Shown: positions 11,401-22,391 of the stretch, in pieces
Numbering within the stretch: position 1 is the stretch's first letter
Layout: each line of letters starts with the position of its first letter
Assembly (NCBI RefSeq): GCF_000016285.1
Contig: NC_011984.1
Span: forward strand, 62,001-126,000
Source: Allorhizobium ampelinum S4
GTDB lineage: Bacteria; Pseudomonadota; Alphaproteobacteria; Rhizobiales; Rhizobiaceae
DNA length: 64,000 nucleotides
Direction: 5' to 3'
The notes under the pieces: generated by a model
Database searches by the model: none
Told to the model about the DNA's origin: nothing
The model's input: only the letters and a program-made list of their open reading frames with translations
Made by a program: the position numbers and the translations under genes

Positions 11401-11929
11401 CGGTTTCTGCATTGCGGATTTCTGACACGAGTGTGCGGATCGCGTCCATGTCGAACTTACCGCGGTCCGTATTAACGAGCGCGAGGGCCGCAGCAGGGCC
11501 GGCGGTTCGGTAGGTTCGAAGCGTTTCGTCGAGCTCGGCTAACTTTGAGGAAACGGAGTTACGGAGATCTTCTAACCGATAGCTTTGCGCGGTGTCCGTT
11601 GTGATCAAGCTCTCGACCCGCGCAAGCCGCGCCTGTATCTGCGCAACGGCCCGCTGATACGGCTGCAGGTACTGCTCTTTGCCGGTCAGCAAATACCCAC
11701 GCTGACCTGTCTCGGCATCCTGGACATCAGACAGGAGAAGGTCGATCGAGACAATGACCTGATGGGTCTTGACTACGCTTTCGTTGCTCGTCCTCAACGT
11801 TTGCGTAGTGTAAACCGCAACGGCGGCACTGATGACGAAGAACGCCAAGGCAGTGGATAGACCGAAGGCCAAAGACTTATCCAGCCCAAGACCACCTATC
11901 TTGGTCACAGCAGCACTTTTCCTATGCAT
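8492..11929 (-). CDS. CHASE3-GAF hybrid histidine kinase with three receiver domains
   Basis: 1145 residues. There are membrane segments near residues 20-42 and 190-215, with a CHASE3-like extracytoplasmic region between them (AETGQRGYLLTGKEQYLQPY is the family hallmark). A GAF domain follows (about 245-375), then a very long Glu/Gln-rich coiled coil (about 380-480). HisKA has its phospho-His in FLANMSHELRTPLN. The HATPase boxes are NLLANAVKFT, DTGIGI and GGTGLGLSI. Three receivers close the protein: acceptor Asp in IVLDVGLPDQ and MVLDLSLPDA, and the last in LVLMDVMMPVMDG. It is the first gene of the operon and the only membrane sensor in it. The signal is unknown. The layout matches a widespread stress/behaviour type of kinase cluster. 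Confidence 0.95.
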   Translation of the reverse strand: MHRKSAAVTKIGGLGLDKSLAFGLSTALAFFVISAAVAVYTTQTLRTSNESVVKTHQVIVSIDLLLSDVQDAETGQRGYLLTGKEQYLQPYQRAVAQIQARLARVESLITTDTAQSYRLEDLRNSVSSKLAELDETLRTYRTAGPAAALALVNTDRGKFDMDAIRTLVSEIRNAETDVRTQRVAEMNRAYVVAFATSLLTGFLGIVLTLVIGGLMRRATLARKNEQWQQEAQVGLGPVVIGEQSTQELGQNILRFLTSYLGAVAGSLYVRDGARYALTAVHGVPAGTVIPERFEESDSLFGHVLRDHRPVTVGELPDGYISFGSSLGQQKPRYLTLAPAMVDGEVKAVFELGFLHPVGDHVLALLERSSNTIAAAIRSAEFRTQLRTLLHETQRQTEELQVQGEELRVSNEELEEQSRALKESQARLEQQQVELEQTNSQLEEQAQELERQKDDLEKANDAVRLQAQEVERASRYKSDFLANMSHELRTPLNSSLILAKLLADNADENLTAEQVKFAQTIQSSGNDLLNLINDILDLSKIEAGHVEVSPEPVAINRTVDGLRQLFDPLAAQKGLNLSIEVAPDVPSVIETDPQRLEQVLKNLLANAVKFTAEGQVSLLVRPAGDAQIAISVVDTGIGIAEDQQRNIFEAFHQADSTISRKFGGTGLGLSISRELVRLLGGRMHLQSRPGTGSTFTVIIPKIFSASAVRAPEPAIITGTTAPALTSNPIATERSPRSHGIVDDDRHLSGSPTRKLLVVEDDQSFAMILRDLARELSFQVLVAGTAQEALELARQHAPSAIVLDVGLPDQSGLSVLDRLKRDVRTRHIPIHIISAEDYSERALSLGAIGYAMKPVQRDELLDVLKSLEAKISQNVRRVLIVEDNQIQREAVSKLIGSQDVETVGAGTAAECLALLKEQTFDCMVLDLSLPDASGFALLETISQDTAHSFPPVIVYTGRVLSAEEEQSLRRFSKSIIIKGAKSPERLLDEVTLFLHQVVSELPDEQQKMIRKARNRDALLEGRRILIVEDDVRNIYALTNILEPRGAVIEIARNGEEALQKLDRSLSSTDGRIDLVLMDVMMPVMDGLTATRHIRNNPNWKKLPVITLTAKAMPDDQKRCIEAGANDYMAKPLDVEKLLSLVRVWMPQ

Positions 11930-12211
11930 CTCTTCTCACACAATTTTCGAAGCGGAAGTTGTATGCGCATGAGCCATGACGACGGGAATCATGCAAGCGT
12001 CGAATCTGACTTCTCAGTTGGTTCGCCGCAGATATTACTCATTCTAACAGAGATTCATGAGGGCCGCCCGGGCCGCCACCGGCGAAATCGTACCGCAACA
12101 TAAAATGGACTTTCAACTGGATCGCCGTTTGCCGCGTGTTGCAACCAAAAATCGCCGACACGGAACATATCGCAATCCGCCGGGTTTGCTTCCCGACCTC
12201 GAGGCGTGACC

Positions 12212-12586
12212 ATGACAGACCAAGACGAAACCACAATCCAGATCGTCGAAGAGAGTGTCAGCGTCGGCAAGGAACGCGTCGCGACGGGACGTGTCCGTGT
12301 CTCCACTTCCAGCTCGGAAGTAGACGAGCTAGCGCAGGCCACTTTGTATGGCACGCGCGTCGAGGTCACGCGGGAGCGCATAGATCTTGAGATCGATGCG
12401 ATCCCCGAAACCAGGGTTGAAGGCGATACCACGATCATTCCCGTCCTCGAGGAGATCGTCGTTATTGAGAAGCGTCTAGTCCTTATAGAAGAAATCCGCA
12501 TCCGCCAAATCGTGACTTCGGAAGACGTCTCCGTCCCGGTAACCGTTCGCAAGCAGACCGCCACCGTCGAGCGTATCGACGAATAG
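12212..12586 (+). CDS. DUF2382 (YsnF/AvaK-type) domain protein
   Basis: About 124 residues from ATG 12212 (a GTG two codons upstream is possible). It is composed of alternating charged beta-strands: IVEESVSVGKERVATGRVRV, then RVEVTRERIDLEIDAIPETR, then IPVLEEIVVIEKRLVLIEEI, which is the pattern of the conserved DUF2382 stress domain. It lacks the PRC-barrel that often precedes the domain. It is soluble and acidic. A GGAAC at 12162-12166 followed 17 bases later by GTTT loosely resembles the alphaproteobacterial EcfG general-stress promoter, but the match is incomplete. The next gene, also stress-type, starts 16 bp downstream with a good AGGAGG site, so the two are probably co-transcribed. Confidence 0.85.
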   Translation: MTDQDETTIQIVEESVSVGKERVATGRVRVSTSSSEVDELAQATLYGTRVEVTRERIDLEIDAIPETRVEGDTTIIPVLEEIVVIEKRLVLIEEIRIRQIVTSEDVSVPVTVRKQTATVERIDE

Positions 12587-12602
12587 CATAGGAGGAAACA
12601 CC

Positions 12603-13058
12603 ATGGCCTACATTGACCAGAACACCGTGCCATCCCATTCCAATACGATCACCGCCTTCTTCCACGACCGTTCTGAAGCAGACCGCGCGATCGAAGGACT
12701 GAGCGAAGCGGGTATTCCCCGCTCCGCAATCAAGATGATCGCCGACGGCAGTGAGACAACCACGACGACGCACGAGAGCAAAGGCTTCTGGGCTGCGCTT
12801 GGTAGTTTTTTCTCGCTGACGATGACCGCAACACCTACGCCGCGTCAAAACGGTGGTGGCGTAGAAGGGCTTTCCGCAATGCTGTCGATACCAGAGTCTG
12901 AAATTGTAAAGCTTCTTTTCGGGCTCGTGACGGTTGCCGTGCCGTCTTCAACAAATACGACCTTAACTCCCGGACGAGGCACTCTGAGGCTCGTCAAGAT
13001 AAGTCGGCAGAAATTGTTCTTAGTCGAGCTGATGACGACTGATTGGCGCCTTGCGTAG
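12603..13058 (+). pseudogene. General-stress-protein 17M-like gene, decayed after its N-terminal domain
   Basis: The first ~65 residues match the GSP17M-like domain (TITAFFHDRSEADRAIEGL, GIPRSAIKMIADG, then SKGFWAALGSFF). The next expected motif (DDRNTYA, about 12821-12844) is in a neighbouring frame. The following segment (LSAMLSIPESEIVKLL) returns to the first frame, and the rest is not family-like. At least two frame disruptions are needed to explain this. An intact 151-codon frame remains, so a chimeric protein could be made, but its C terminus is not native. Start ATG 12603 is preceded by AGGAGGAAACACC. Confidence 0.65.
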
Positions 13059-13067
13059 TGTCTAATT

Positions 13068-13085
13068 CATCCCTATATTGGGATG
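13068..13085 (+). promoter_or_regulatory. Inverted repeat, probable autoregulatory operator of the toxin-antitoxin pair
   Basis: CATCCC, six bases (TATATT), GGGATG form a perfect 6-bp dyad ending 5 bp before the ATG at 13091. Type II antitoxins commonly bind a palindrome in their own promoter. The position and symmetry fit, and the function is inferred. Confidence 0.5.
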
Positions 13086-13090
13086 GATTG

Positions 13091-13744
13091 ATGAAGGAGT
13101 CATGCTTGTCCCAAATCCAGAATTTCACGCTGAGCGAAGCAGGGTATGTCCTGGGCAGAACCCCAGCGATGCTCAACAAGGCGGTTGACACAGGTGTCAT
13201 TCACGCCCGGCAAAAGAAGGTGGGGAACATGGTTCAAAGGCTCCTTGGCCCGGCCGAACTGCGCTTCCTGCGGCTTGCAGATGAACTCGACAAGGACCTG
13301 ACGCCAGCAGGGCGGCGCCGGCTCTATGGTGCCTTGCGCAAATTGCCCGATGATGCTCACAAACTCCAGCTCGGTAGGCTTGAACTGGATCTTGCGCAAA
13401 TCGATACCGATCTTAAAGTCCGAATGGCGAGACTTGAGGCCGTCAGAGACAGGATTGAGAGAAAGGGCGATCGGGGTGAGGCGGTTGTTCGTGGAACGAC
13501 TATTTCGGCGCACTTGATTGCCGCTTTGACGCGCGCCGAGGGTGTCGATGTGGTCCTTAAAGATTTTCCTTCCCTTACGCGGGATCAGGTCGAAGCTGCA
13601 GTCGAGTATGCGAAGGCTTACCCGAAGCGCGGGCGTCCCTATCCAACGAAGAGCCTGAAGAGCACTTTGGCCGATTTGGCTGATGCTGGTGCATTCGATG
13701 ATGACGGTGACCCTGGTGAAGTCGCACCAAGGGCCATTCCGTGA
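13091..13744 (+). CDS. DUF433-type antitoxin with N-terminal HTH
   Basis: 217 residues. An N-terminal helix-turn-helix resembling MerR/excisionase types (FTLSEAGYVLGRTPAMLNKA) is followed by a helical linker. A C-terminal DUF433 domain follows (RGTTISAHLIAALTRAEGVD, then FPSLTRDQVEAAVEYAKAYP), as in antitoxins paired with PIN toxins. Its stop overlaps the toxin start as GTGA, a strong sign of a co-translated pair. ATG 13091 is used here. TTG 13106, directly after AAGGAG, could be the real start. The antitoxin should bind and neutralise the downstream RNase and repress the promoter through the dyad just upstream. Confidence 0.85.
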   Translation: MKESCLSQIQNFTLSEAGYVLGRTPAMLNKAVDTGVIHARQKKVGNMVQRLLGPAELRFLRLADELDKDLTPAGRRRLYGALRKLPDDAHKLQLGRLELDLAQIDTDLKVRMARLEAVRDRIERKGDRGEAVVRGTTISAHLIAALTRAEGVDVVLKDFPSLTRDQVEAAVEYAKAYPKRGRPYPTKSLKSTLADLADAGAFDDDGDPGEVAPRAIP

Positions 13745-14172
13745 CGCTTTATCTGCTCGATGAAAATGTTCTCCGTGAACTCAAGCACGGCGGGCACAAG
13801 AATGTGCATCAATGGATCGCGACGGTCGATGACACGGATCTTCGGCTGAGTGTCGCGACGCTATTCGAAAAGCGTCGGGGAGCCGAAGCATTGATGAAGC
13901 GTGAACCGGAACGCGCTCAAAGGATCCTTGATGGCATCGAGATGCTCGAAAAATCGTTTTCTGATCGCATCATTCCGATTGACGGGCCGGTTGTCGCCGA
14001 GTGGACGCGCCTTCTCGGAAGCAAGAACAAGGACCGATGGGACGTTGCACTGGCCGCGACCGCACGCGTCCACCGGCTCGTGGTGGTGACGCGAAACGTC
14101 TCCGATTTTACGGGGCGTGGTGTTCGAATCCTCAATCCGTTCAAGTCACCCCCGGAAGTGTTGGATATTTAG
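13741..14172 (+). CDS. PIN-domain toxin (VapC-like ribonuclease)
   Basis: 143 residues starting with GTG that overlaps the antitoxin stop. PIN-domain acidic residues are visible: Asp7 in YLLDENVLREL, Glu in the VATLFEKRRGAEAL helix, Asp in KDRWDVALAATARVH, and the C-terminal Asp of VVTRNVSDFTGRGVRILNPF. These chelate the metal for RNA cleavage in the VapC superfamily. Full length, with no frame damage. RNA substrate unknown. It belongs to the subgroup encoded after DUF433 antitoxins. Confidence 0.88.
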   Translation: MTLYLLDENVLRELKHGGHKNVHQWIATVDDTDLRLSVATLFEKRRGAEALMKREPERAQRILDGIEMLEKSFSDRIIPIDGPVVAEWTRLLGSKNKDRWDVALAATARVHRLVVVTRNVSDFTGRGVRILNPFKSPPEVLDI

Positions 14173-14206
14173 GCGACCGCTCCGACGCGCAACGTTTCTT
14201 TCGGGG

Positions 14207-15067
14207 TTACGGGTTGGTTTGCATCTTCGCTTCGAGCGTGAGGCCCAGCGCGGAAATGACCTTGAGTATTGACACCAGTTCCGGATTGCCATCTTTTCCG
14301 AGCGCCCTGTAAAGGCTTTCTCTAGCTAACCCTGTTTCTTTCGCTATCTGCGTCATTCCTCCCTTTTTCGCACGGGCAAGATGGCCCAACGCGTCGATAA
14401 ATGAGGAGGGGTCGCCAGAGGCCAGGGCAGCATTCACATTGGCAGCTGGATCCCCGACCGGTGGAAGGCCTGTGGTGGTGGAGTCCTTCACCGGCTCAAC
14501 GTCTCGAACCGTTTCCAGCAGATCGGCTTGCGCGCTTGATTCCTCTACTTCCCATTCGTCAGAAGTCGCGCGGTCGCGTAAATTTTCGCGGAGGTCAGCG
14601 CTACATTTGGCTAGAAACGCGCTCCATTGTTCTCCGGTTTTAAATGTTACCGGTGACTTCTCAGGAACGTTCAAAAGGACAGCTTTTTTCCCAGCCTTGA
14701 TTAGGCGCAGGACGTTCAAGACCGTGCCAGGGCTCTTGCCGTCCCAGATCATGAATCCGAAATCGGCCTCTCGGGTCATCTCGCGGTCCTTCGCCGCATA
14801 AAACTGGAAGCCCTTCACGTGCTTAGGCGGCGTGATATTTTGCGTTCGCCATTCACCGAGATTATTGCGAGGTTTGTCGCCGGAGCAGAATACGGTCACC
14901 TTTTCATAGGCTGCGTCTGAAAAGTGCTTTTGGACTGCTTTGTCCGCACCATTGGCGTCGCCGACAACTACGTGATGCCCATTCTCAATGATATTGTTTA
15001 ATCGCTCTTTCGCTTGAGCAGGCAGCCGCGAAATGTGTCGCGAGCCACCGATGAAGACGGTGTTCAA
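14207..15067 (-). CDS. SLOG-like nucleotide-binding domain fused to an antitoxin-type HTH
   Basis: 286 residues. Residues 1-150 form a Rossmann-like domain of the SLOG type: VFIGGSRHISRLP at the start, VVVGDANGADKAVQKHF (the G-x-A-x-G-x-D motif of DUF2493/SLOG proteins), and DFGFMIWDGKSPGT. A low-complexity linker follows. Residues ~225-286 are a helix-turn-helix of the addiction-module-antidote/HigA2 type (GGMTQIAKETGLARESLYRA, then LVSILKVISALGLTLEA). The start is TTG 15067, overlapping the stop of the upstream phosphoribosyltransferase as TTGA, so the two were one translation unit. The fusion suggests a ligand-controlled repressor or the sensor of a conflict system. Base composition is visibly more A/T-rich than the catabolic genes. 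The function is inferred. Confidence 0.75.
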   Translation of the reverse strand: MNTVFIGGSRHISRLPAQAKERLNNIIENGHHVVVGDANGADKAVQKHFSDAAYEKVTVFCSGDKPRNNLGEWRTQNITPPKHVKGFQFYAAKDREMTREADFGFMIWDGKSPGTVLNVLRLIKAGKKAVLLNVPEKSPVTFKTGEQWSAFLAKCSADLRENLRDRATSDEWEVEESSAQADLLETVRDVEPVKDSTTTGLPPVGDPAANVNAALASGDPSSFIDALGHLARAKKGGMTQIAKETGLARESLYRALGKDGNPELVSILKVISALGLTLEAKMQTNP

Positions 15068-15653
15068 TGGTTGCTCCGTGTCTTGGTTATCGTGAGGACG
15101 CGTACACTAGATGCTTGGCCTTGTCCGAGCAGGACTTTGGTGATCTCGTTTAGCGTGGTGCCGGATCGGAAAACATCGTCGAATAGAAGAATGTTTTTCC
15201 CAGCTGTATACCGGGGGTCAACAGCGTAAAGACCGCACGCTAGGTCTTTGCGCTTCGCCGGATCATTCTCATTTTTCAGCTGAGCCGTTGGGCGAGTGGT
15301 GGCGACGCATTTTATGACGGGGATCTGGACGCTTGCGCCAATCCCGTCTGCCAGAACGTACACAGGCTGGACAGCGCGGGGGGTGACGGAGGCGCGGGGA
15401 TAAGAATGTCAAATTTTGCGCGGTGAGGCTGGATGAAGGCGGCCGCGGCTTCGATGATACCCTGCGCCGCCCCTTGGTTGTTCTTATACTTCAACTAATA
15501 GAGAAAGTCTGCAATAGAGGGCCTCACAGTATCGAATTGCATATGACCAGCTTCATTGTAACCAACTGGCGTGCTGCTGGTCGTATGGAGATCGAGCGCC
15601 ACGCCAGACTGCCAGTTGACGTTTATTTCTTGCCAATGAATCTCGACCGCCAT
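15064..15653 (-). pseudogene. ComF-like phosphoribosyltransferase, broken by a stop codon and a frameshift
   Basis: Read from ATG 15653, the chain begins MAVEIHWQEINVNWQSG and continues with LDLHTTSSTPVGYNEAGHMQ up to ADFLY. A TAG stop follows (15495-15497), then LKYKNNQGAAQGIIEAAAAF. A frame change occurs in a C6 run (G6 on the plus strand, about 15378-15383), where seven Cs would restore the frame. Next come RAVQPVYVLADGIGA and the PRPP-binding loop ILLFDDVFRSGTTLNE. The reconstructed protein is about 196 residues, close to a single PRTase domain. It overlaps the SLOG-HTH gene. As it stands the gene should be inactive unless the C run slips and the TAG is read through. Confidence 0.75.
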
Positions 15654-15793
15654 TCTGCCCTCAGTTGCGATATATGTAGCCTATGGGTTACATCTCTGCA
15701 AGGGCCTTGATCTTATATGGCTCGACCGATCAAGGTGATCCAGTCATAAGAAGCCGGAATTGTACGCGCAACACGCGTTGCGGAGCGGAGCTG

Positions 15794-16560
15794 ATGGCGA
15801 TGTCCGAAAAGAGCGTATTCCAGGAAACCTATATACGGGCGGCAGGAGCAACAGCCTTTATCGCTGTGGTCAATACGAACGGTGATGAAGGGATTGGTTC
15901 GGCATTCCATATCGGCGAAGGTATATTCGTCACGGCTCGGCATGTGATCGATGGCGTTACCATCAAAGAAATTGCGACCACAAAGTCCGCACACCTGAGC
16001 GAAGAAACTGGCGGGAAGGCTGCCCCGCCGCGATGGCTTGAGATCATCGATGGACCCTATTACGGACCGGATGAACTAGACGTCGCAGTCTTCCGCGTCG
16101 ACCTCGGTGAAACGCCGTGGCCTGCGATCACGGTCAGCCAGCACACGGACTATTCCCTCGAAGAGAATGACCTTATCCTATCAGACGTACTTGTTATTGG
16201 TTATCCTCCGATTCCATTCACAACTGTGCCAACCCAAGTTGTAACGCTGGGACAGATAAACGCTGTTGCGCGTTCATCATTCGAAGATCCTGCACTTCAT
16301 CGCATCTGCTACAGCCCGTGGCGGCTTCAGCGGTGGTGTGGTGCTCGACAAGTCAGGCATCGCGCTTGCTTTGGTTACCGAAAGTCTCGGTAAAAGCGAT
16401 ATGCCCTTAGAAACGGGATATATGAGCCTGTTGTCGATCGAGCCCGCGGTGGATCTGGCGGCCGAGAAGTTTGGCTTCAGCACGCACGGCAGCTATCCCG
16501 GTCGATACAGTGACACGCTGTTCGCTGTGAAATTCTCAAACCCCAGCGCTCGTCCGCTCA
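15794..16560 (+). pseudogene. Trypsin-like serine protease, frameshifted
   Basis: The frame from ATG 15794 (or 15800) has a chymotrypsin-fold protease layout: GSAFHIGEGIFVTARHVIDG carries the catalytic His and ELDVAVFRVDLG the catalytic Asp. After RSSFEDPALH the frame goes out of register near 16285-16295. The continuation, with the catalytic Ser in TARGGFSGGVVLDKSG, is in the next frame. One extra base in the CC of GATCCTGC would explain it. There is no signal peptide, so it is cytosolic, as expected for a conflict-system protease. The 3' end is unclear because an IS3 fragment begins soon after 16560. Its neighbours (E2/E1-like gene, SLOG/PRTase) suggest a defence context. Confidence 0.75.
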
Positions 16561-16569
16561 GCTCGTTCA

Positions 16570-16848
16570 TCTGTCCGTCGTCGAATGATTTGAGACTTCC
16601 TCGGCTTTGGAAGAATGGAGTTTCCGGCTCGGTTTGCGCGTTGATTTAAGCTGCTTTCTTTTGGTGGTTCAAGCGGCGTTGTCTGATGGTGTCTCTTTTG
16701 ATCTTTTCGCGTTCGAGCAGTATGGTCTGGCCGCGCCCGGAGTAGACGTCGGCTGGGGTAAGATTGTCGAGGCTTTCGTGATAGCGCCGATGGTTGTAGT
16801 GCTCGACAAAAGCCGCGATCTGAGCTTCGAGGTCCTCCTGGAAGAACT
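16570..16848 (-). pseudogene. IS3-family transposase OrfB, C-terminal fragment
   Basis: On the minus strand, a frame ending at TAA 16646 reads DLEAQIAAFVEHYNHRRYHE, then SLDNLTPADVYSGRGQTILL, then REKIKRDTIRQRRLNHQKKAA. This is the C terminus of IS3-group OrfB integrases. Only ~65 residues remain and the catalytic DDE residues are absent. Both edges abut parts of other genes (protease on the left, E2/E1-like gene on the right). The fragment therefore marks a deletion that removed the sequence between them. The outer limits are estimates. Confidence 0.8.
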
Positions 16849-17054
16849 AGGACCGGATTCCGTCAACGCGCTCGAAGATGCCGCCCACCAAATACCTGAA
16901 GAAATTGTCACGGTCGTTGGTGCCGAAGGCCGTGGAGGCGCCGGCCTTATTGCCGTCCGGGCATTGAATCCGAAGTTTGCACGTAGCCGACCATCACCGG
17001 TCGCTGAGCCAGTGACGAAGGGATTTCGCGCTGGCAAGGCTCCGCCAACACTAG

Positions 17055-17896
17055 GAATTGTGGACAGTTATTTAAGCCACAATATTGTCGCTGCGAGAGC
17101 GACCATGGCTCGATAGTTCCGGGCCGTTTTCTCGTATCTGGTGGCAATACGCCGAAATTGTTTGAGCTTTGAAAAGCAACACTCGACCAGATGGCGCTGC
17201 GCGTAGAGTTGCTTGTCGAGTGGATATTTCTTTGCGCGAGCGGGGGTGTTTGGAATGACGGCTTTCGCTCCCTTCTCGGCGATAGTTTTGCGCAGTCGGT
17301 CACTGTCGTAGGCGGTATCCGCCATGACGACCTCGGCGGGAAGCTCTTCAACCAGAGCGTCGGCCTGTGGTGCATCACCTTTCTGGCCTGCTGTGAGAAT
17401 GAAGCGCACGGGGCATCCAAGACCACGCACAGCCATATGAATTTTGGTGCTTAGGCCGCCGCGAGAACGGCCAAGGGCCTGATCTTCAGCCCCCTTTTTG
17501 CGCCGGAGGCGTGCTGGTGAGCGCGGATGATGGTGCTGTCGATGATCAGGTATTCGAAATCACGGTCATCTGACATCGCTTCGAAAACCCGCCACCAGAC
17601 GCCCTTTTGGCTCCAGCGGCTAAAGCGCCGAAAGACGCTGTTCCAATCGCCGAACACCTCAGGCAGGTCACGCCAGGGTGAGCCTGTGCGTGCGATCCAA
17701 AGTACCGCTTCCACGAACATGCGATTATCCCGCCCGGAAGAGCCGCGGGTGCGAGCATCACCGATGATGTGTCGGGAAATCCGATCCCATTGGTCGTCTC
17801 GAAGAATCAAACGCTCCAGGACACCCATGACGGCCTCCAAAAGACAGTCTTGAATCGCATATCTAGATGTTTGGGAATCCTAAGAGTCCACACATC
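17055..17896 (-). mobile_element. IS5-family (IS427 group) insertion sequence, intact
   Basis: The 842-bp element is flanked by a CTAG duplication (17051-17054 and 17897-17900). Its ends are inverted repeats: GAATTGTGGACAGTTA on the left against GATGTGTGGACTCTTA read inward from the right. Removing the element and one CTAG restores the reading frame of the host gene, which independently confirms the boundaries. It looks recent, with both ends and both orfs intact. Confidence 0.92.
17068..17840 (-). CDS. IS427-group transposase, made by -1 frameshifting
   Basis: OrfA (17840 to 17451) begins with MGVLERLILRDDQWDRISRH shortly after its start, and holds the first DDE Asp in YLIIDSTIIRAHQHASGAKRG. 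OrfB follows in the -1 frame: AEDQALGRSRGGLSTKIHM, with the second Asp in VVMADTAYDSDRLR and the last acidic residue in HLVECCFSKLKQFRR. The overlap contains AAAAAGGGGG on the coding strand. A -1 slip there joins AKRG to AEDQALG, as in other IS427-group elements, so this is programmed frameshifting and not damage. The transposase appears complete. Confidence 0.88.
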
Positions 17897-18927
17897 CTAG
17901 TCAGTCAGCGATTTTTCGGGAGGACACCTGTGGTGAGATCGTCAGTGCAGCGCGCCGATGCAGCCTGGATACACGGACGAGGGCAGGATCCCCGAACCGA
18001 GCGACTTTTCTCCTCCACCGTTGTGATCATCGGTTGCGGTTCGGTCGGCGCGCCGGTCGCCTGTTCGCTGGCGCAAGCTGGCGTCGGCCATCTTGTACTT
18101 GTCGATCTTGATGAGTTGAGCTGGCCGAATGTCGGCCGCCATCCTCTCGGCGCGACTGCAATCGGCAAGAACAAGGCGATTGCACTGGCTGAGCGCTTGC
18201 AGATGGATTACCCCCATCTTCTTATCGAAAGCCGGTCATGTGGCATGAGCGCGCTCCTTCAGTTGGACACCGAATTGCTCGCCGGGGCCGATCTTATCAT
18301 CTCGGCGACGGGCAGTTGGGCGGCGGAGCATGCTTTGAACGAGTGGCATCTTGAGCAAGGCAGGAAAAAGCCAGTCCTCTATTGCTGGACTGAGGCACAC
18401 GCCTGTGCGGGTCATGCGGTGGCAATAGCCGAACACGGCGGATGCCTGCAATGCCATCTTAGCACCACCGGTACCCCGGATTTCAAGGTGGTGGATTGGC
18501 CAGATGGCCTTGGGCAGAGTAGGGAAGAACCGGCGTGCGGCGCGCATTTCCAGCCTTACGGCCCTGTTGAGCTTTCCTTTGTGAACGCTATGGCCAGCGA
18601 CATGGCGCTCGAATGCTTGCTTGATGCACCTAGCACGTCAGTCCATCGGATCTTTGCTGCCCCGCACAAGCGCATTGGAATGCTGGGCGGGGTCTACAGT
18701 ACTGACTGGTGTTCCGAGTTCGGGACAAAAGATGGCGATGGTAGGGTAGTCGATCGTCACTGGAGCGTACGCGGTTGCGCTGCTTGCCGCCGAGCGCCTT
18801 CTGATAAATAATCATGATATCCAGAACGTTGAGGTTCTGGCTGACTTTTTTCTGTGGGTAAGGGAAAATCAGGCAGGACAGGCAGCGGAAGCAAGCAAAC
18901 GCCTTCTTGTTTTGTGAAAGTCTGGAA

Positions 18928-19428
18928 ATGGCAGATCGCGTTGCACATACCAGCCGGGGCAAGTGGTCTTCACCAGGAATTCCGCATAAGGGGTGGACCT
19001 GCGTAGGCATCGACGATCTTGAAGCGCCGTCGCAGGAATGTGAAATGTGCGAAAGCGTTGATGTTCGCTACGTACACTACATGGAGCATCCGAACTATCC
19101 GGAGACACTTGCTGTAGGTTGCGTATGTGCAGAACACATGGAAGGCGACTACGTCAGGCCAAAGCAGCGAGAGACGGGGATGCGGCTGATCGCCCGCCGG
19201 CGGAAATCCTGGGCCGGGAAGAAGTGGCGGGTTTCGCAACTAGGCAATCATTTCGCCAACACTGAAGGCTTTAATCTTACTGTCTTTGAACGCGGTGAAG
19301 GATTTGGGATCTCTGTCGCGCGTCGCGGGACGGATAAGCGTCAGATTGGTAGGAAGAATTATCCGAGCCAGGAAGGGGCTAAAGCTGCCGCACTAAGCGC
19401 GCTCCTATGGGCGAAAACGCACTTGTGA
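18928..19428 (+). CDS. Unrecognised Cys-rich protein next to the E1-like gene
   Basis: 166 residues from ATG 18928 (a TTG 21 bp earlier is also open). I do not recognise the family by name. The N-terminal half has a likely zinc site: GWTCVGIDDL, CEMCESVDV, YVHYMEHPNYPE, then VGCVCAEHM. The C-terminal half is basic and beta-rich (KKWRVSQLGNHFANTEGFNL, then FGISVARRG), ending in a helix. No signal peptide or membrane segment. It lies 116 bp after the E1-like gene on the same strand, which makes it a candidate component of the same island. JAMM deubiquitinase residues were looked for and not seen. Confidence 0.6.
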   Translation: MADRVAHTSRGKWSSPGIPHKGWTCVGIDDLEAPSQECEMCESVDVRYVHYMEHPNYPETLAVGCVCAEHMEGDYVRPKQRETGMRLIARRRKSWAGKKWRVSQLGNHFANTEGFNLTVFERGEGFGISVARRGTDKRQIGRKNYPSQEGAKAAALSALLWAKTHL

Positions 19429-19682
19429 TGGCGCCGCAAGAGTCTAACGATCGCCCATAGAAGATGTCCCTTCCGGCAATTCGCGGCGTAAGCACCTCAT
19501 AGGTTGCCCTGTATCACAGCGCAGCTTGATCTCAGGGCGGCTGTGACTAGAATGGGGCCTACCGGGGCGACAGAAACAAACTGAGTTATTGAATTCCAAC
19601 ATATACAATCATGCCGGGTTATGGGGCCGCGCGACCTGCTCCGGGAAACGCACGCCGTCAACCCGTTGCGACACACCAATGC

Positions 19683-21116
19683 CTAGCAACGCGGCTTGAT
19701 CTCCTTGACGCGCAGATTGTTGGTGCCGCCGCTCGTCGCGAAGGGAAAGCCCGCGACGATCACGATATTGTCGGACGGACGCGCCATGTTCGCAGCGATC
19801 GCCGTGCGTTCGGCAAAATCCACCGATCGCTCGTAATCGAAGACACCGTCAAGCCGGGTACTGGTTACGCCCCACATCAAGCCCATTCGTCGTGCTACAT
19901 CCGCCGCCTGCGTCACACCGAGGATCGGCATTGACGGACGAGCTCGTGAAATTCGAGACGCCGTCGTGCCGCTGACCGTGAAGGCAAGGATGAGCGGCGC
20001 GTTCAGTGCAGTTCCCACACTGGCTGCGGCGTAGGCCACGGCATGCGACGGCGTCTTCTCGATTTCCGGGTCGGTGGCCTCGAGGATGGGGCGATAGAGC
20101 TTGTGCCTCTCGGTCTTCTCGATGATCCGGTCCATCATGGCGACCGCCTCGACCGGGTAAGCGCCCGTCGCGGATTCGGCCGACAGCATCACGGCGTCCG
20201 CTCCATCATAGATCGCGCCGGCCACGTCGGATGCCTCGGCCCTCGTCGGCGTCGGCGAGGATACCATCGAGTCCAGCATCTGCGTCGCGACGATGACGGG
20301 TTTCGCCGCCATCCTGCAGGCGCGAATGATTTCCTTCTGCCTGCCGGGAACGTCTTCCGGTGGGATCTCGACACCGAGATCGCCACGGGCCACCATTATG
20401 GCGTCGGACAGCCGGACGATGTCTTCAATTTCGTCGAGAGCCGACGGCTTTTCGATCTTTGCAACAAGGCCGGCACGGTCGCCGACCAGAGATCGCGCCT
20501 CGATCATGTCCCGCGCTTTCTGAACGAATGACAAAGCGATCCAGTCGACGCCGAGATTGAGGCCAAATTCGAGGTCTTCGCGATCCTTCGCCGTCAGAGG
20601 CGATATGTCCAGAACGGCTCCGGGGATGTTGACCCCTTTCCGGTTGGATATGAGACCGGCAGTTATGACCTCCGCCTCGATGTGGTTGTCATCGACCCGG
20701 TTCACCCGGACACGCACGCGTCCGTCGTCGATCAGCAGGTCGTCTCCCGGCACCACCGCTTTGAAAATCTCGCGATGGGGCAGCGGAATATTCAGGAGAC
20801 CCGTTCCGGGTGTCGAGCCGCACACGAAACGGACTTCCGCTCCCTTTTCGAGAGTTAGTCGCCCGTCGGCAATGGTTCCGATCCGGATTTTCGGGCCTTG
20901 GAGGTCCTGCAGGATTCCGATCGGCGATCCAAGTTCCTGTTCGATAGCCCGGATGCTTCGGAACACCTGCTCGTGGCTGCTTCGCTCGCCATGACTGAAG
21001 TTTAGCCTGAAGGTATCGACGCCCGCCATAAAAAGTGACTTGAGAATTTCGGGTGTATGCGAGGCGGGGCCGACCGTCGCGACGATCTTGGCCCTGCGGT
21101 TGTTGCGAATGAACAT
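19683..21116 (-). CDS. ttuE: Pyruvate kinase of the tartrate operon
   Basis: 477 residues, full length. Pyruvate kinase hallmarks: RRAKIVATVGPAS near the start, FRLNFSHGE, the active-site Lys in GLVAKIEKPSALDEI, MVARGDLGVEIP for metal binding, and ATQMLDSM. It converts PEP and ADP to pyruvate and ATP. It is the last gene of a minus-strand set whose order (regulator divergent; carrier, tartrate dehydrogenase, hydroxypyruvate reductase/glycerate kinase, pyruvate kinase) equals ttuABCDE of Agrobacterium vitis. The gap to the preceding gene is 6 bp. It handles the PEP formed from the 2-phosphoglycerate produced by the pathway. Confidence 0.93.
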   Translation of the reverse strand: MFIRNNRRAKIVATVGPASHTPEILKSLFMAGVDTFRLNFSHGERSSHEQVFRSIRAIEQELGSPIGILQDLQGPKIRIGTIADGRLTLEKGAEVRFVCGSTPGTGLLNIPLPHREIFKAVVPGDDLLIDDGRVRVRVNRVDDNHIEAEVITAGLISNRKGVNIPGAVLDISPLTAKDREDLEFGLNLGVDWIALSFVQKARDMIEARSLVGDRAGLVAKIEKPSALDEIEDIVRLSDAIMVARGDLGVEIPPEDVPGRQKEIIRACRMAAKPVIVATQMLDSMVSSPTPTRAEASDVAGAIYDGADAVMLSAESATGAYPVEAVAMMDRIIEKTERHKLYRPILEATDPEIEKTPSHAVAYAAASVGTALNAPLILAFTVSGTTASRISRARPSMPILGVTQAADVARRMGLMWGVTSTRLDGVFDYERSVDFAERTAIAANMARPSDNIVIVAGFPFATSGGTNNLRVKEIKPRC

Positions 21117-21122
21117 GATGGT

Positions 21123-22391
21123 TTAGCCAATCAGGATTGCACGGATGTCGTTGACGTTGGTGAGTGTCGGACCGGTGATGATGAGGTCGTCGACGGCTTT
21201 GAACGCCGTATAGCTGTCGTGGCGGGCCAGAGCGGTGCGTGGCGTGACGCCTGCATTGCGCATGCGCGAAAGGGTGTCGGGCGTTACGATTGCTCCGGCC
21301 GCATCCTCGATACCGTCGAGGCCGTCGGTGTCGCCTGCGATTGCCCAGACCCTGTCCAGGCCATTCAATCCGATCGCGAGACTGAGGAGAAATTCTGTGT
21401 TTCGACCGCCGCGCCCCGTCGCGTCCGATGAAAGCGAGACCGAGGTTTCGCCACCGGAGAGAATGACAGCAGGACCGGAAACCGGTTCTCCTTTCTGTTT
21501 CGCCGAGGTCGCAATTGCGGCGAGGACCGTACCGACGTCCTTGGCTTCACCCTGGAGCGCATCGCCAAGAATGAGAGGATTCAGTCCCTGGTCCCGCGCG
21601 ACCTGCGCCGCAGCAGCCAGGGCTTTGCCCGGCGAGGCGATCATTCGAACCACGGTGTTCGGATTTGCAGGACCACTCGGTGCGCCGCCACTAGACAGAA
21701 CTTCTTCTGCAGCCGCCGGCAGCGACAGGCGATACCGCGCGACGATCTCGCGCGCGTCGTCGATGCTGGTTGGGTTGGCGACGGTCGGGCCAGAGGCGAT
21801 CTCCGAAGGGTCGTCGCCGGGTACGTCGGAAATCAGAAGGCTGACGACACGGGCGGGATAGGCGAGTTGCGCCAGACGACCGCCCTTAATGGTCGACAAT
21901 TGCCGGCGCACGGTGTTCATCTCGGAGATTGTTGCACCGCTTTCCAGCAGGGCCTTGTTGACCGCCTTTTTGTCGTCGAGCGTCATGCGCCCGGCCGGAG
22001 AAACAAGCAGCGCGGACCCGCCACCCGAAATCAACGCAATCACCAGATCGTCAGGACCGAGATCGCGGATACAGGCGGTGATACGTCCCGCCGCTTCAAG
22101 GCTCATTGCGTCAGGTACAGGATGGGCCGCCTCGATGATGTCGATCCGTCCCGCCGGAACAGCGTGACCGTAACGGGTGACCACGACACCACTAAGGTCG
22201 ACACCGGTCCATGCTGTATCGAGGGCAGCCGCCATGGCCGCCGATGCCTTGCCAGCACCGATGACCACGCACCGACCCTTCGGCGGTTCGGGAAGGTGAT
22301 ACGCGACCACCTTCGCCGGGTCGGCACTTGCTACGGCTGCATCGAACATTCGGCGCAGCGCGTTGCGAGCGGAAGTATCCGTCCAGATCAT
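21123..22391 (-). CDS. ttuD: Hydroxypyruvate reductase / glycerate 2-kinase (MOFRL family)
   Basis: 422 residues. An N-terminal GCK domain (VVIGAGKASAAMAAALD, ALISGGGSALLVSP) is followed by a C-terminal MOFRL domain (VILSGGETSVSL, IAGDTDGLDGIEDAAGA). The gene is called hydroxypyruvate reductase in the A. vitis tartrate locus, but sequence relatives are mostly glycerate 2-kinases. Either activity fits the path from tartrate through glycerate to 2-phosphoglycerate. Its ATG overlaps the tartrate dehydrogenase stop as ATGA. Confidence 0.9.
   Translation of the reverse strand: MIWTDTSARNALRRMFDAAVASADPAKVVAYHLPEPPKGRCVVIGAGKASAAMAAALDTAWTGVDLSGVVVTRYGHAVPAGRIDIIEAAHPVPDAMSLEAAGRITACIRDLGPDDLVIALISGGGSALLVSPAGRMTLDDKKAVNKALLESGATISEMNTVRRQLSTIKGGRLAQLAYPARVVSLLISDVPGDDPSEIASGPTVANPTSIDDAREIVARYRLSLPAAAEEVLSSGGAPSGPANPNTVVRMIASPGKALAAAAQVARDQGLNPLILGDALQGEAKDVGTVLAAIATSAKQKGEPVSGPAVILSGGETSVSLSSDATGRGGRNTEFLLSLAIGLNGLDRVWAIAGDTDGLDGIEDAAGAIVTPDTLSRMRNAGVTPRTALARHDSYTAFKAVDDLIITGPTLTNVNDIRAILIG

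What the first reader, a model, noticed from the sequence alone, without database searches (positions are those of the whole stretch)
14207..15653. SLOG-HTH fusion coupled to a ComF-like phosphoribosyltransferase
Seen: a SLOG-type nucleotide-binding domain (VVVGDANGADKAV) fused to an antitoxin-type HTH, with a TTG start overlapping the stop of a PRTase gene (ILLFDDVFRSGTTLNE). Known: SLOG and PRTase domains recur in nucleotide-centred stress and conflict systems. The fusion of SLOG to an addiction-module HTH, translated with a PRTase, is not an arrangement I recognise. Inference: the PRTase could make or modify a nucleotide-like ligand sensed by the SLOG domain, which then relieves repression.
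Basis: partly seen in the sequence, partly recalled or inferred. Interest (0 to 1): 0.75.

Follow-up and report, generated by a model that had tools for sequence, protein, structure and literature searches.

The report
Self-repressing plasmid toxin-antitoxin, toxin broken
Next to a broken enzyme gene, this plant-bacterium plasmid keeps what looks like the matching antidote, a nucleotide-binding protein that also carries a DNA-binding tail; the pair belongs to a plasmid-borne family, apparently undescribed, that resembles known anti-phage toxin-antitoxin systems.

Summary

Elsewhere the pair is real: in 10 of 10 sampled genomes besides the window's own, an intact PRTase sits directly upstream of the SLOG gene. 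The PRTase resembles ComF and the toxin PRTases PsyrT and ShosT. On plasmids, 50 of 50 records with a full-length PRTase also hold a SLOG match, while 10 of 14 with a broken PRTase keep a whole SLOG gene, as expected of toxin and antitoxin.

New here: an 18-bp palindrome 21-30 bp before the PRTase start marks 12 of 12 distinct HI1420-HTH systems and 0 of 26 other SLOG loci. A second SLOG branch fused a different (XRE) HTH and carries a different palindrome (4 of 4). The HTH is therefore most likely an autorepressor, recruited twice.

Best reading: a PsyrTA/ShosTA-like toxin-antitoxin or defence module, a new variant; in this window an orphan antitoxin. Toxicity, repression and ligand are untested.

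The parts
14207..15067 (-). SLOG-HTH protein, 286 aa, TTG start; proposed antitoxin and autorepressor, intact
14594..15067 (-). SLOG domain (residues 1-158)
14456..14542 (-). low-confidence linker (residues 176-204)
   Evidence: pLDDT below 50
14228..14443 (-). HI1420-type antitoxin helix-turn-helix (residues 209-280)
   Evidence: Pfam PF21716 70.4 bits, cut-off 27; TIGR02684 80 bits, cut-off 53.7; PHROGs 'transcriptional repressor' E 1e-21
15064..15653 (-). broken PRTase (toxin-like) gene: in-frame stop at 15495-15497 and a frame change between about 15420 and 15363
   Evidence: intact relatives; one search finds it as two pieces
15064..15363 (-). remaining 99-aa open frame of the PRTase, holding the PRPP loop; lacks the N-terminal half
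15675..15692 (.). palindrome TGTAGCCTATGGGTTACA, predicted operator of the HTH domain, 21 bp before the PRTase ATG
13043..14172 (+). neighbour, not part of the system: DUF433 protein and PIN-domain (VapC-like) toxin, convergent with the SLOG-HTH gene; the same neighbours in A. rubi, A. fabrum and A. vitis F2/5
15794..16572 (+). neighbour: divergent trypsin-like serine protease, interrupted here; homology to the A. fabrum island ends at 16572

Best explanation
The two genes derive from a plasmid-borne toxin-antitoxin-like module. The upstream PRTase (ComF-type fold, PRPP-binding loop) is the toxin or effector; it probably disturbs nucleotide pools or DNA, as its relatives PsyrT/RqlH and ShosT do. 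The downstream SLOG protein holds it in check, probably by binding it, and releases it when a trigger (a phage or an incoming element) changes what the SLOG domain binds. In this branch the SLOG protein carries a recruited HI1420-type HTH that binds the palindrome at 15675-15692 and represses the operon, so antitoxin level and toxin expression are coupled. In this window the PRTase has been inactivated, leaving the antitoxin-repressor as an orphan. Shown by computation: predicted folds, pairing, palindrome, lesions. Inferred: toxicity, inhibition, trigger, repression. Not known: the ligand.
Confidence: 0.62

Rival explanations
1. Ligand-signalling pair: the PRTase makes or consumes a nucleotide that the SLOG domain senses, and the HTH is relieved from DNA, switching on other genes.
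For: SLOG domains bind nucleotides, and ThsA SLOG senses a signal molecule (PMC9503650, passages); the fold matches ThsA and YpsA; PRTase and SLOG are neighbours in every sampled genome that has the SLOG gene in full.
Against: The palindrome occurs once in the genome, before the operon itself, so there is no visible regulon. Most relatives fetched have no HTH of this kind (46 of 70 rows lack the HI1420 HTH). Nearest studied relatives are toxin and antitoxin (PMC4670107). A sensor should be lost with its signal maker, yet SLOG outlives the PRTase.
Confidence: 0.17
2. Anti-addiction: after loss of the PRTase the SLOG-HTH is kept because it neutralises the toxin of incoming related plasmids.
For: Whole SLOG gene beside at least three separate kinds of PRTase damage: A. 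vitis stop and frame change, a stop in Rhizobium sp. CC1099, truncation beside an IS in Enterobacter plasmids; related intact modules sit on other Agrobacterium plasmids.
Against: Too few changes in A. vitis to show continued selection; simple neutral lag explains it as well. This rival adds to the best explanation rather than replacing it.
Confidence: 0.12
3. The PRTase is a metabolic or DNA-uptake enzyme like chromosomal ComF, and the SLOG partner a DprA-like DNA handler: a plasmid-borne competence accessory.
For: Best fold and profile matches of the PRTase are ComF; DprA is also a SLOG protein, and the window protein and three relatives give weak DprA matches (E 1e-4 to 0.03, all below cut-off).
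Against: SLOG profile against DprA scores only 1.2; two intact PRTases are far below the ComF cut-off (44.9 and 48.1 of 233.55 bits); plasmid, integrase-side and defence-island setting.
Confidence: 0.06
4. Unrelated neighbours in a decaying island; the adjacency is chance.
For: The region is decaying in this window.
Against: Adjacent in 10 of 10 sampled genomes besides the window's own.
Confidence: 0.03

Closest known systems
PsyrTA / RqlHI (RecQ-PRTase toxin with DprA/MoCo-like plus HTH antitoxin)
   Same: Gene order: PRTase protein, then a SLOG-like protein directly downstream (5 of 7 PsyrT loci read); PRTase domains related; in RqlHI the PRTase domain is the genotoxic part, RqlI restrains it and has a C-terminal HTH (PMC4670107, passages).
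   Different: No helicase here; two PsyrA proteins scanned are clear DprA relatives (118 and 137 bits, cut-off 29.6), this SLOG is not; HTH of the HI1420 family.
ShosTA (PRTase toxin with DprA-like antitoxin)
   Different: Gene order reversed in the three loci where both genes were seen (of five top ShosA loci read); ShosA is a close DprA relative (profile 100), this SLOG is not (1.2).
HigA/HI1420-type type II antitoxins
   Same: The HTH domain belongs to this family, above both curated cut-offs.
   Different: Fused to SLOG, and the partner is a PRTase rather than a RelE-like nuclease (the usual partner is recalled, not from a call).
Thoeris ThsA (SIR2-SLOG sensor-effector)
   Different: No SIR2 or TIR partner in the pair.
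ComF / chromosomal PRTase
   Different: Different setting; two intact relatives far below the ComF family cut-off.

Membership tests
SLOG superfamily | Rossmann-like SLOG fold | tested here: met
SLOG superfamily (LOG-type hydrolases) | catalytic PGGxGTxxE motif (recalled) | tested here: not met
   By eye, the corresponding stretch reads WDGKSPGTVLN with no Glu (consensus of alignment A4), so a binding role is more likely
DprA (PF02481) | profile match above the gathering score | tested here: not met
   13.9 bits, cut-off 29.6; three relatives also below it; hhalign probability 1.2
PsyrTA / RqlHI | PRTase fused to a RecQ-like helicase | tested here: not met
   Intact PRTases are about 190-205 aa; five scanned show no helicase domain
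PsyrTA / RqlHI | toxin gene directly upstream of a SLOG-like gene with C-terminal HTH | tested here: met
   order in PsyrTA, HTH of RqlI from PMC4670107
PsyrTA / RqlHI | antitoxin homologous to PsyrA/RqlI (DprA type) | tested here: not met
   PsyrA passes the DprA cut-off, this protein does not; hhalign to PsyrA only 12.9
PsyrTA / RqlHI and ShosTA | PRTase toxic without its partner | not testable with these tools
   Needs expression in a laboratory strain
ShosTA | PRTase homologous to ShosT | tested here: inconclusive
ShosTA | DprA-like ShosA | tested here: not met
   PADLOC ShosA E 0.036 in one of four SLOG proteins; hhalign 82.6 to ShosA but 1.2 to DprA, while ShosA-DprA is 100
ShosTA | gene order ShosA then ShosT | tested here: not met
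   L125, L126, L136 against PRTase-first here
dnstrm_HI1420 antitoxin domain | profile match above curated cut-off | tested here: met
ComF family | TIGR00201 curated cut-off | tested here: not met
   44.9 and 48.1 bits for two intact relatives, cut-off 233.55; a third gave no match
Anti-phage defence system | protects against phage | not testable with these tools
   Only context: defence islands and an integrase next door in two viral contigs

The most novel reading that the evidence does not exclude
This is a distinct, unnamed PRTase-SLOG toxin-antitoxin or defence family, carried by plasmids and prophage-like contigs of Pseudomonadota and at least one Listeria plasmid, built on a non-DprA SLOG sensor. 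Two separate SLOG lineages each fused a different DNA-binding domain (HI1420 HTH; XRE HTH) and evolved their own operator, so that one protein is antitoxin, ligand sensor and autorepressor. In A. vitis the toxin died while the antitoxin-repressor stayed.
Probability: 0.5. Interest if true: 0.72.

Novelty: new variant of a known kind. Interest (0 to 1): 0.6.

Why it matters
PRTase toxins with DprA-like antitoxins (PsyrTA, RqlHI, ShosTA) are known, but how the partner senses infection and controls the toxin is not settled. This family offers a minimal two-gene version (each about 200 aa without the HTH) with, in two branches, a built-in DNA-binding reporter: if a ligand or the PRTase changes operator binding, the trigger can be sought with a simple DNA-binding or reporter assay. 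The palindromes are precise, cheap predictions. The family is also on plasmids of clinical Klebsiella and Enterobacter isolates, where the records name it 'ComF family protein' or 'amidophosphoribosyltransferase' and 'hypothetical protein'.

Tried and rejected
Sequence search of the SLOG-HTH profile against solved structures found only HTH antitoxins (HigA E 0.001, HipB 0.4 and above), so the SLOG call rests on the fold. PADLOC and NCBIfam name neither the SLOG domain nor the system. PHROGs matches the SLOG part to phrog_289, labelled only 'GTP-binding domain' (E 8e-7; relatives 1e-5 and 8e-9). A phage collection search found nothing (0 of 50,697 records), although six IMG/VR stretches carry the SLOG gene, five of them with a PRTase beside it and one cut at its edge. 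The HI1420 palindrome also occurs in 28 IMG/VR stretches, none with a SLOG gene in the part fetched: in a collection that large it is not specific on its own; its weight comes from position and co-occurrence. Both palindrome patterns were derived from the same loci they mark, so the contrast with other SLOG loci is the test, not the match itself. A family search for ShosA mostly found DprA-like genes (154 of 190 genomes), and one for PsyrT mostly RecQ-type matches (184 of 200); only the top loci were read. Two of five top ShosA loci showed no PRTase neighbour and two of seven PsyrT loci no PsyrA. Serine protease as third partner: divergent next to the pair in A. rubi, A. fabrum, CC1099 and A. 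vitis, nearby in G417 and G598, but not beside A. tumefaciens, Xanthomonas or S. meliloti, so rejected as a required part. G095 (positions 104-129 only, E 4e-4) was dropped as a fragment. In one search the script stopped with an error after three of five relatives, one of them itself broken. In one search a script failed for a missing file. On the tree the HI1420 group needs 2 changes, because HTH-less proteins lie inside it, and the join of the long orphan branches may be false. Papers: PMC4670107, PMC9122126, PMC12593503, PMC10732053 and PMC9503650 were read as passages only; Sberro 2013 is not held and Pu 2025 was seen only through the review PMC12593503. That this family is not described in print rests on searches of an open-access library (listings); Burroughs 2015 on SLOG networks (recalled) was not read.

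Full report
What is in the window. The SLOG-HTH ORF at 14207-15067 (minus strand, 286 aa, TTG start) is intact; its start overlaps the TGA stop of the PRTase frame by 4 bp. The C-terminal domain (residues 209-280) is an HI1420-type addiction-module antitoxin HTH, above the curated cut-offs of Pfam and NCBIfam. Convergent to it lie a DUF433 protein and a PIN-domain toxin. The window is part of contig C3 of a 6.3-Mb genome; the same-species genome G004 carries a 100% identical protein on a contig of 370,903 bases, the length of the named record that also matches at 100%, Agrobacterium vitis CG78 plasmid pAvCG78b, so the window is most likely an A. vitis plasmid (inference).

The PRTase is broken here. 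From its ATG at 15653 the frame meets an in-frame stop at 15495-15497, and the conserved sequence moves to another frame between about 15420 and 15363; what remains open is a 99-aa frame with the PRPP loop. A genome search sees the gene as two pieces, one with a stop. Three A. vitis plasmid records match in two pieces; three more match only residues 54-195, again in two pieces, with an insertion sequence in front in the two that were read. Intact relatives of about 190-205 aa exist. Two window pieces still show strong past constraint against three relatives, one of which is itself broken (dN/dS 0.03-0.08), so the gene was probably functional until recently.

The pair is conserved. A whole-genome search of 385 genomes of the class found a full SLOG match in 6 (a seventh, G095, is a 26-residue fragment at E 4e-4 and was dropped) and, among PRTase matches, exactly those 6 genomes below E 1e-40 (next 2e-18); all are adjacent, PRTase first. 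A phylum sample of 398 genomes gave 7, two of them shared with the class sample, all adjacent. Leaving out the window's genome, 10 of 10 distinct genomes have an uninterrupted pair. Of 63 genomes of the genus, 7 match over the SLOG part: G000, G004 and G057 with a broken PRTase, G059, G055, G056 and G061 with an intact one. The protein database holds 2947 relatives of the SLOG part (of 3138 candidates) and 905 of the PRTase (of 1282). On plasmids 98 of 72,556 records carry the SLOG gene, 55 of them conjugative; phages 0 of 50,697; E. coli 8 of 5,426 genomes for one enterobacterial version, 7 on chromosomes. Six IMG/VR stretches encode it, five with a PRTase beside it; in two of them the neighbour is a phage-type integrase.

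Toxin-antitoxin logic. Three intact PRTases match the PADLOC profiles of PsyrT (E 4e-16, 2e-14, 3e-7; its C-terminal PRTase part) and ShosT (5e-8, 5e-8, 9e-4). Profile-profile comparison gave 99.2 to ComF, 97.9 to PsyrT and 93.7 to ShosT, with controls below 0.1; PsyrT and ShosT score only 24.9 against each other. RqlH, a PsyrT relative, is genotoxic through its PRTase domain unless RqlI, a DprA/MoCo-like protein with a C-terminal HTH, is present (PMC4670107, passages); a DprA-PRTase pair from a P2 hotspot protects against T7 and lambda (PMC9122126, passages); ShosT disturbs purine metabolism and ShosA binds DNA (PMC12593503, passage). On plasmids, 50 of 50 records with a PRTase covered in one piece over at least 93% also list a SLOG match, while 14 have a broken PRTase: 10 with a whole SLOG, 2 with part, 2 with none. 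These are redundant records, and one-piece coverage can hide a stop: Rhizobium sp. CC1099 was moved to 'broken' after translation showed a stop inside the PRPP loop; the other 50 were not each translated. 28 of the 90 SLOG records listed (of 98 found) have no PRTase match; the three of them placed on the tree form one clade.

The HTH has a likely operator. Aligning the upstream regions of eight HI1420-type systems showed one conserved block in otherwise diverged DNA: the palindrome TGTARCCYATRGGYTACA, 21 bp before the start codon in the window and 22-30 bp in seven others measured. Of 70 SLOG rows in the sequences held, 24 are HI1420-fused and 21 of these have it within 900 bp; the other three rows are two loci (G057, A. 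vitis F2/5) in which an insertion sequence has pushed it further upstream. Merging identical loci by hand gives 12 of 12 distinct systems. None of the 46 rows without this HTH has it; merged, and leaving out three with at most 173 bp of flank, 0 of 26. The window copy (15675-15692) is the only match at up to 3 mismatches in 64 kb (expected 0.03) and the only one at up to 2 mismatches in the genome. In 63 genus genomes it occurs at up to 1 mismatch only in the four that carry this system. Against: no sigma-70 promoter was called there, and 28 unrelated IMG/VR stretches carry the same 18-mer.

Two recruitments. On a tree of 36 SLOG domains the HI1420-fused proteins and the XRE ones lie on opposite sides of a branch with support 98/96. 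The four XRE-fused systems (S. meliloti, near-identical G673, Polymorphobacter, M. populi) have a different palindrome before the PRTase, ATACAAAATTTTGTAT with one change at most; it occurs nowhere else in the 205 sequences held. In A. vitis G061, where the XRE protein is a separate overlapping gene, no clear palindrome was seen. Shuffled controls reach 8 or 9 matching bases in 55 of 600 trials, and one HTH-less locus (Magnetococcales) has a longer, terminator-like repeat, so length alone is not significant; conservation within the branch is what counts.

Setting. In A. rubi, A. fabrum and Rhizobium sp. CC1099 the pair sits in an island with CBASS genes, an XRE-ImmA/IrrE pair and a divergent serine protease; in S. 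meliloti beside a nucleotidyltransferase, an HNH and a SIR2 gene; in enterobacteria beside replication, partition or restriction genes.

Conclusion. It works like PsyrTA/RqlHI and ShosTA but is not a member of either by the tested features: no helicase, a SLOG that is not DprA-type (two PsyrA proteins pass the DprA cut-off; this one does not), and a PRTase-first order unlike ShosTA. It is a new variant of a known kind, with an autorepressing antitoxin predicted from a specific operator. In this window only the antitoxin-repressor survives. Toxicity, inhibition, trigger, repression and ligand remain inferred.

Noticed in passing
window 15794-17840: The trypsin-like serine protease divergent from the pair is interrupted; homology to the A. 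fabrum island ends at 16572, followed by a transposase in two ORFs (17068-17840, Pfam DDE_Tnp_1 and DUF4096). The CBASS, XRE and ImmA/IrrE genes that follow in A. fabrum were not found in window 11901-21200.
   Followed up: partly
L107:9844-12224 and L152:8466-10993: A HEPN/Toprim N-terminal domain protein (Pfam E 4e-74 in L107) overlaps a trypsin-like protease gene near two intact PRTase-SLOG pairs; by eye a trypsin-like gene also sits beside a PsyrTA locus, L146. Possibly a recurring defence neighbour.
   Followed up: partly
L122, L162, L164 and 25 further plasmid records: Orphan SLOG proteins without any PRTase match, in Mesorhizobium, Shinella, Sphingobium and other plasmids; the three on the tree are clustered, two of them on long branches. 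Role unknown.
   Followed up: no
window 17867-18811: ThiF-family E1-like protein (Pfam E 7e-27) next to the insertion sequence; partner genes not identified.
   Followed up: no
window 13043-14172: DUF433 protein plus PIN-domain toxin pair has open frames beside the decaying island and is shared with A. rubi and A. fabrum.
   Followed up: no
L123 (Neisseria gonorrhoeae, two records labelled plasmids but about 2.17 Mb): A divergent PRTase-SLOG pair lies on what looks like the chromosome (35.8% and 41.7% identical), with no annotated feature there in the table held.
   Followed up: no
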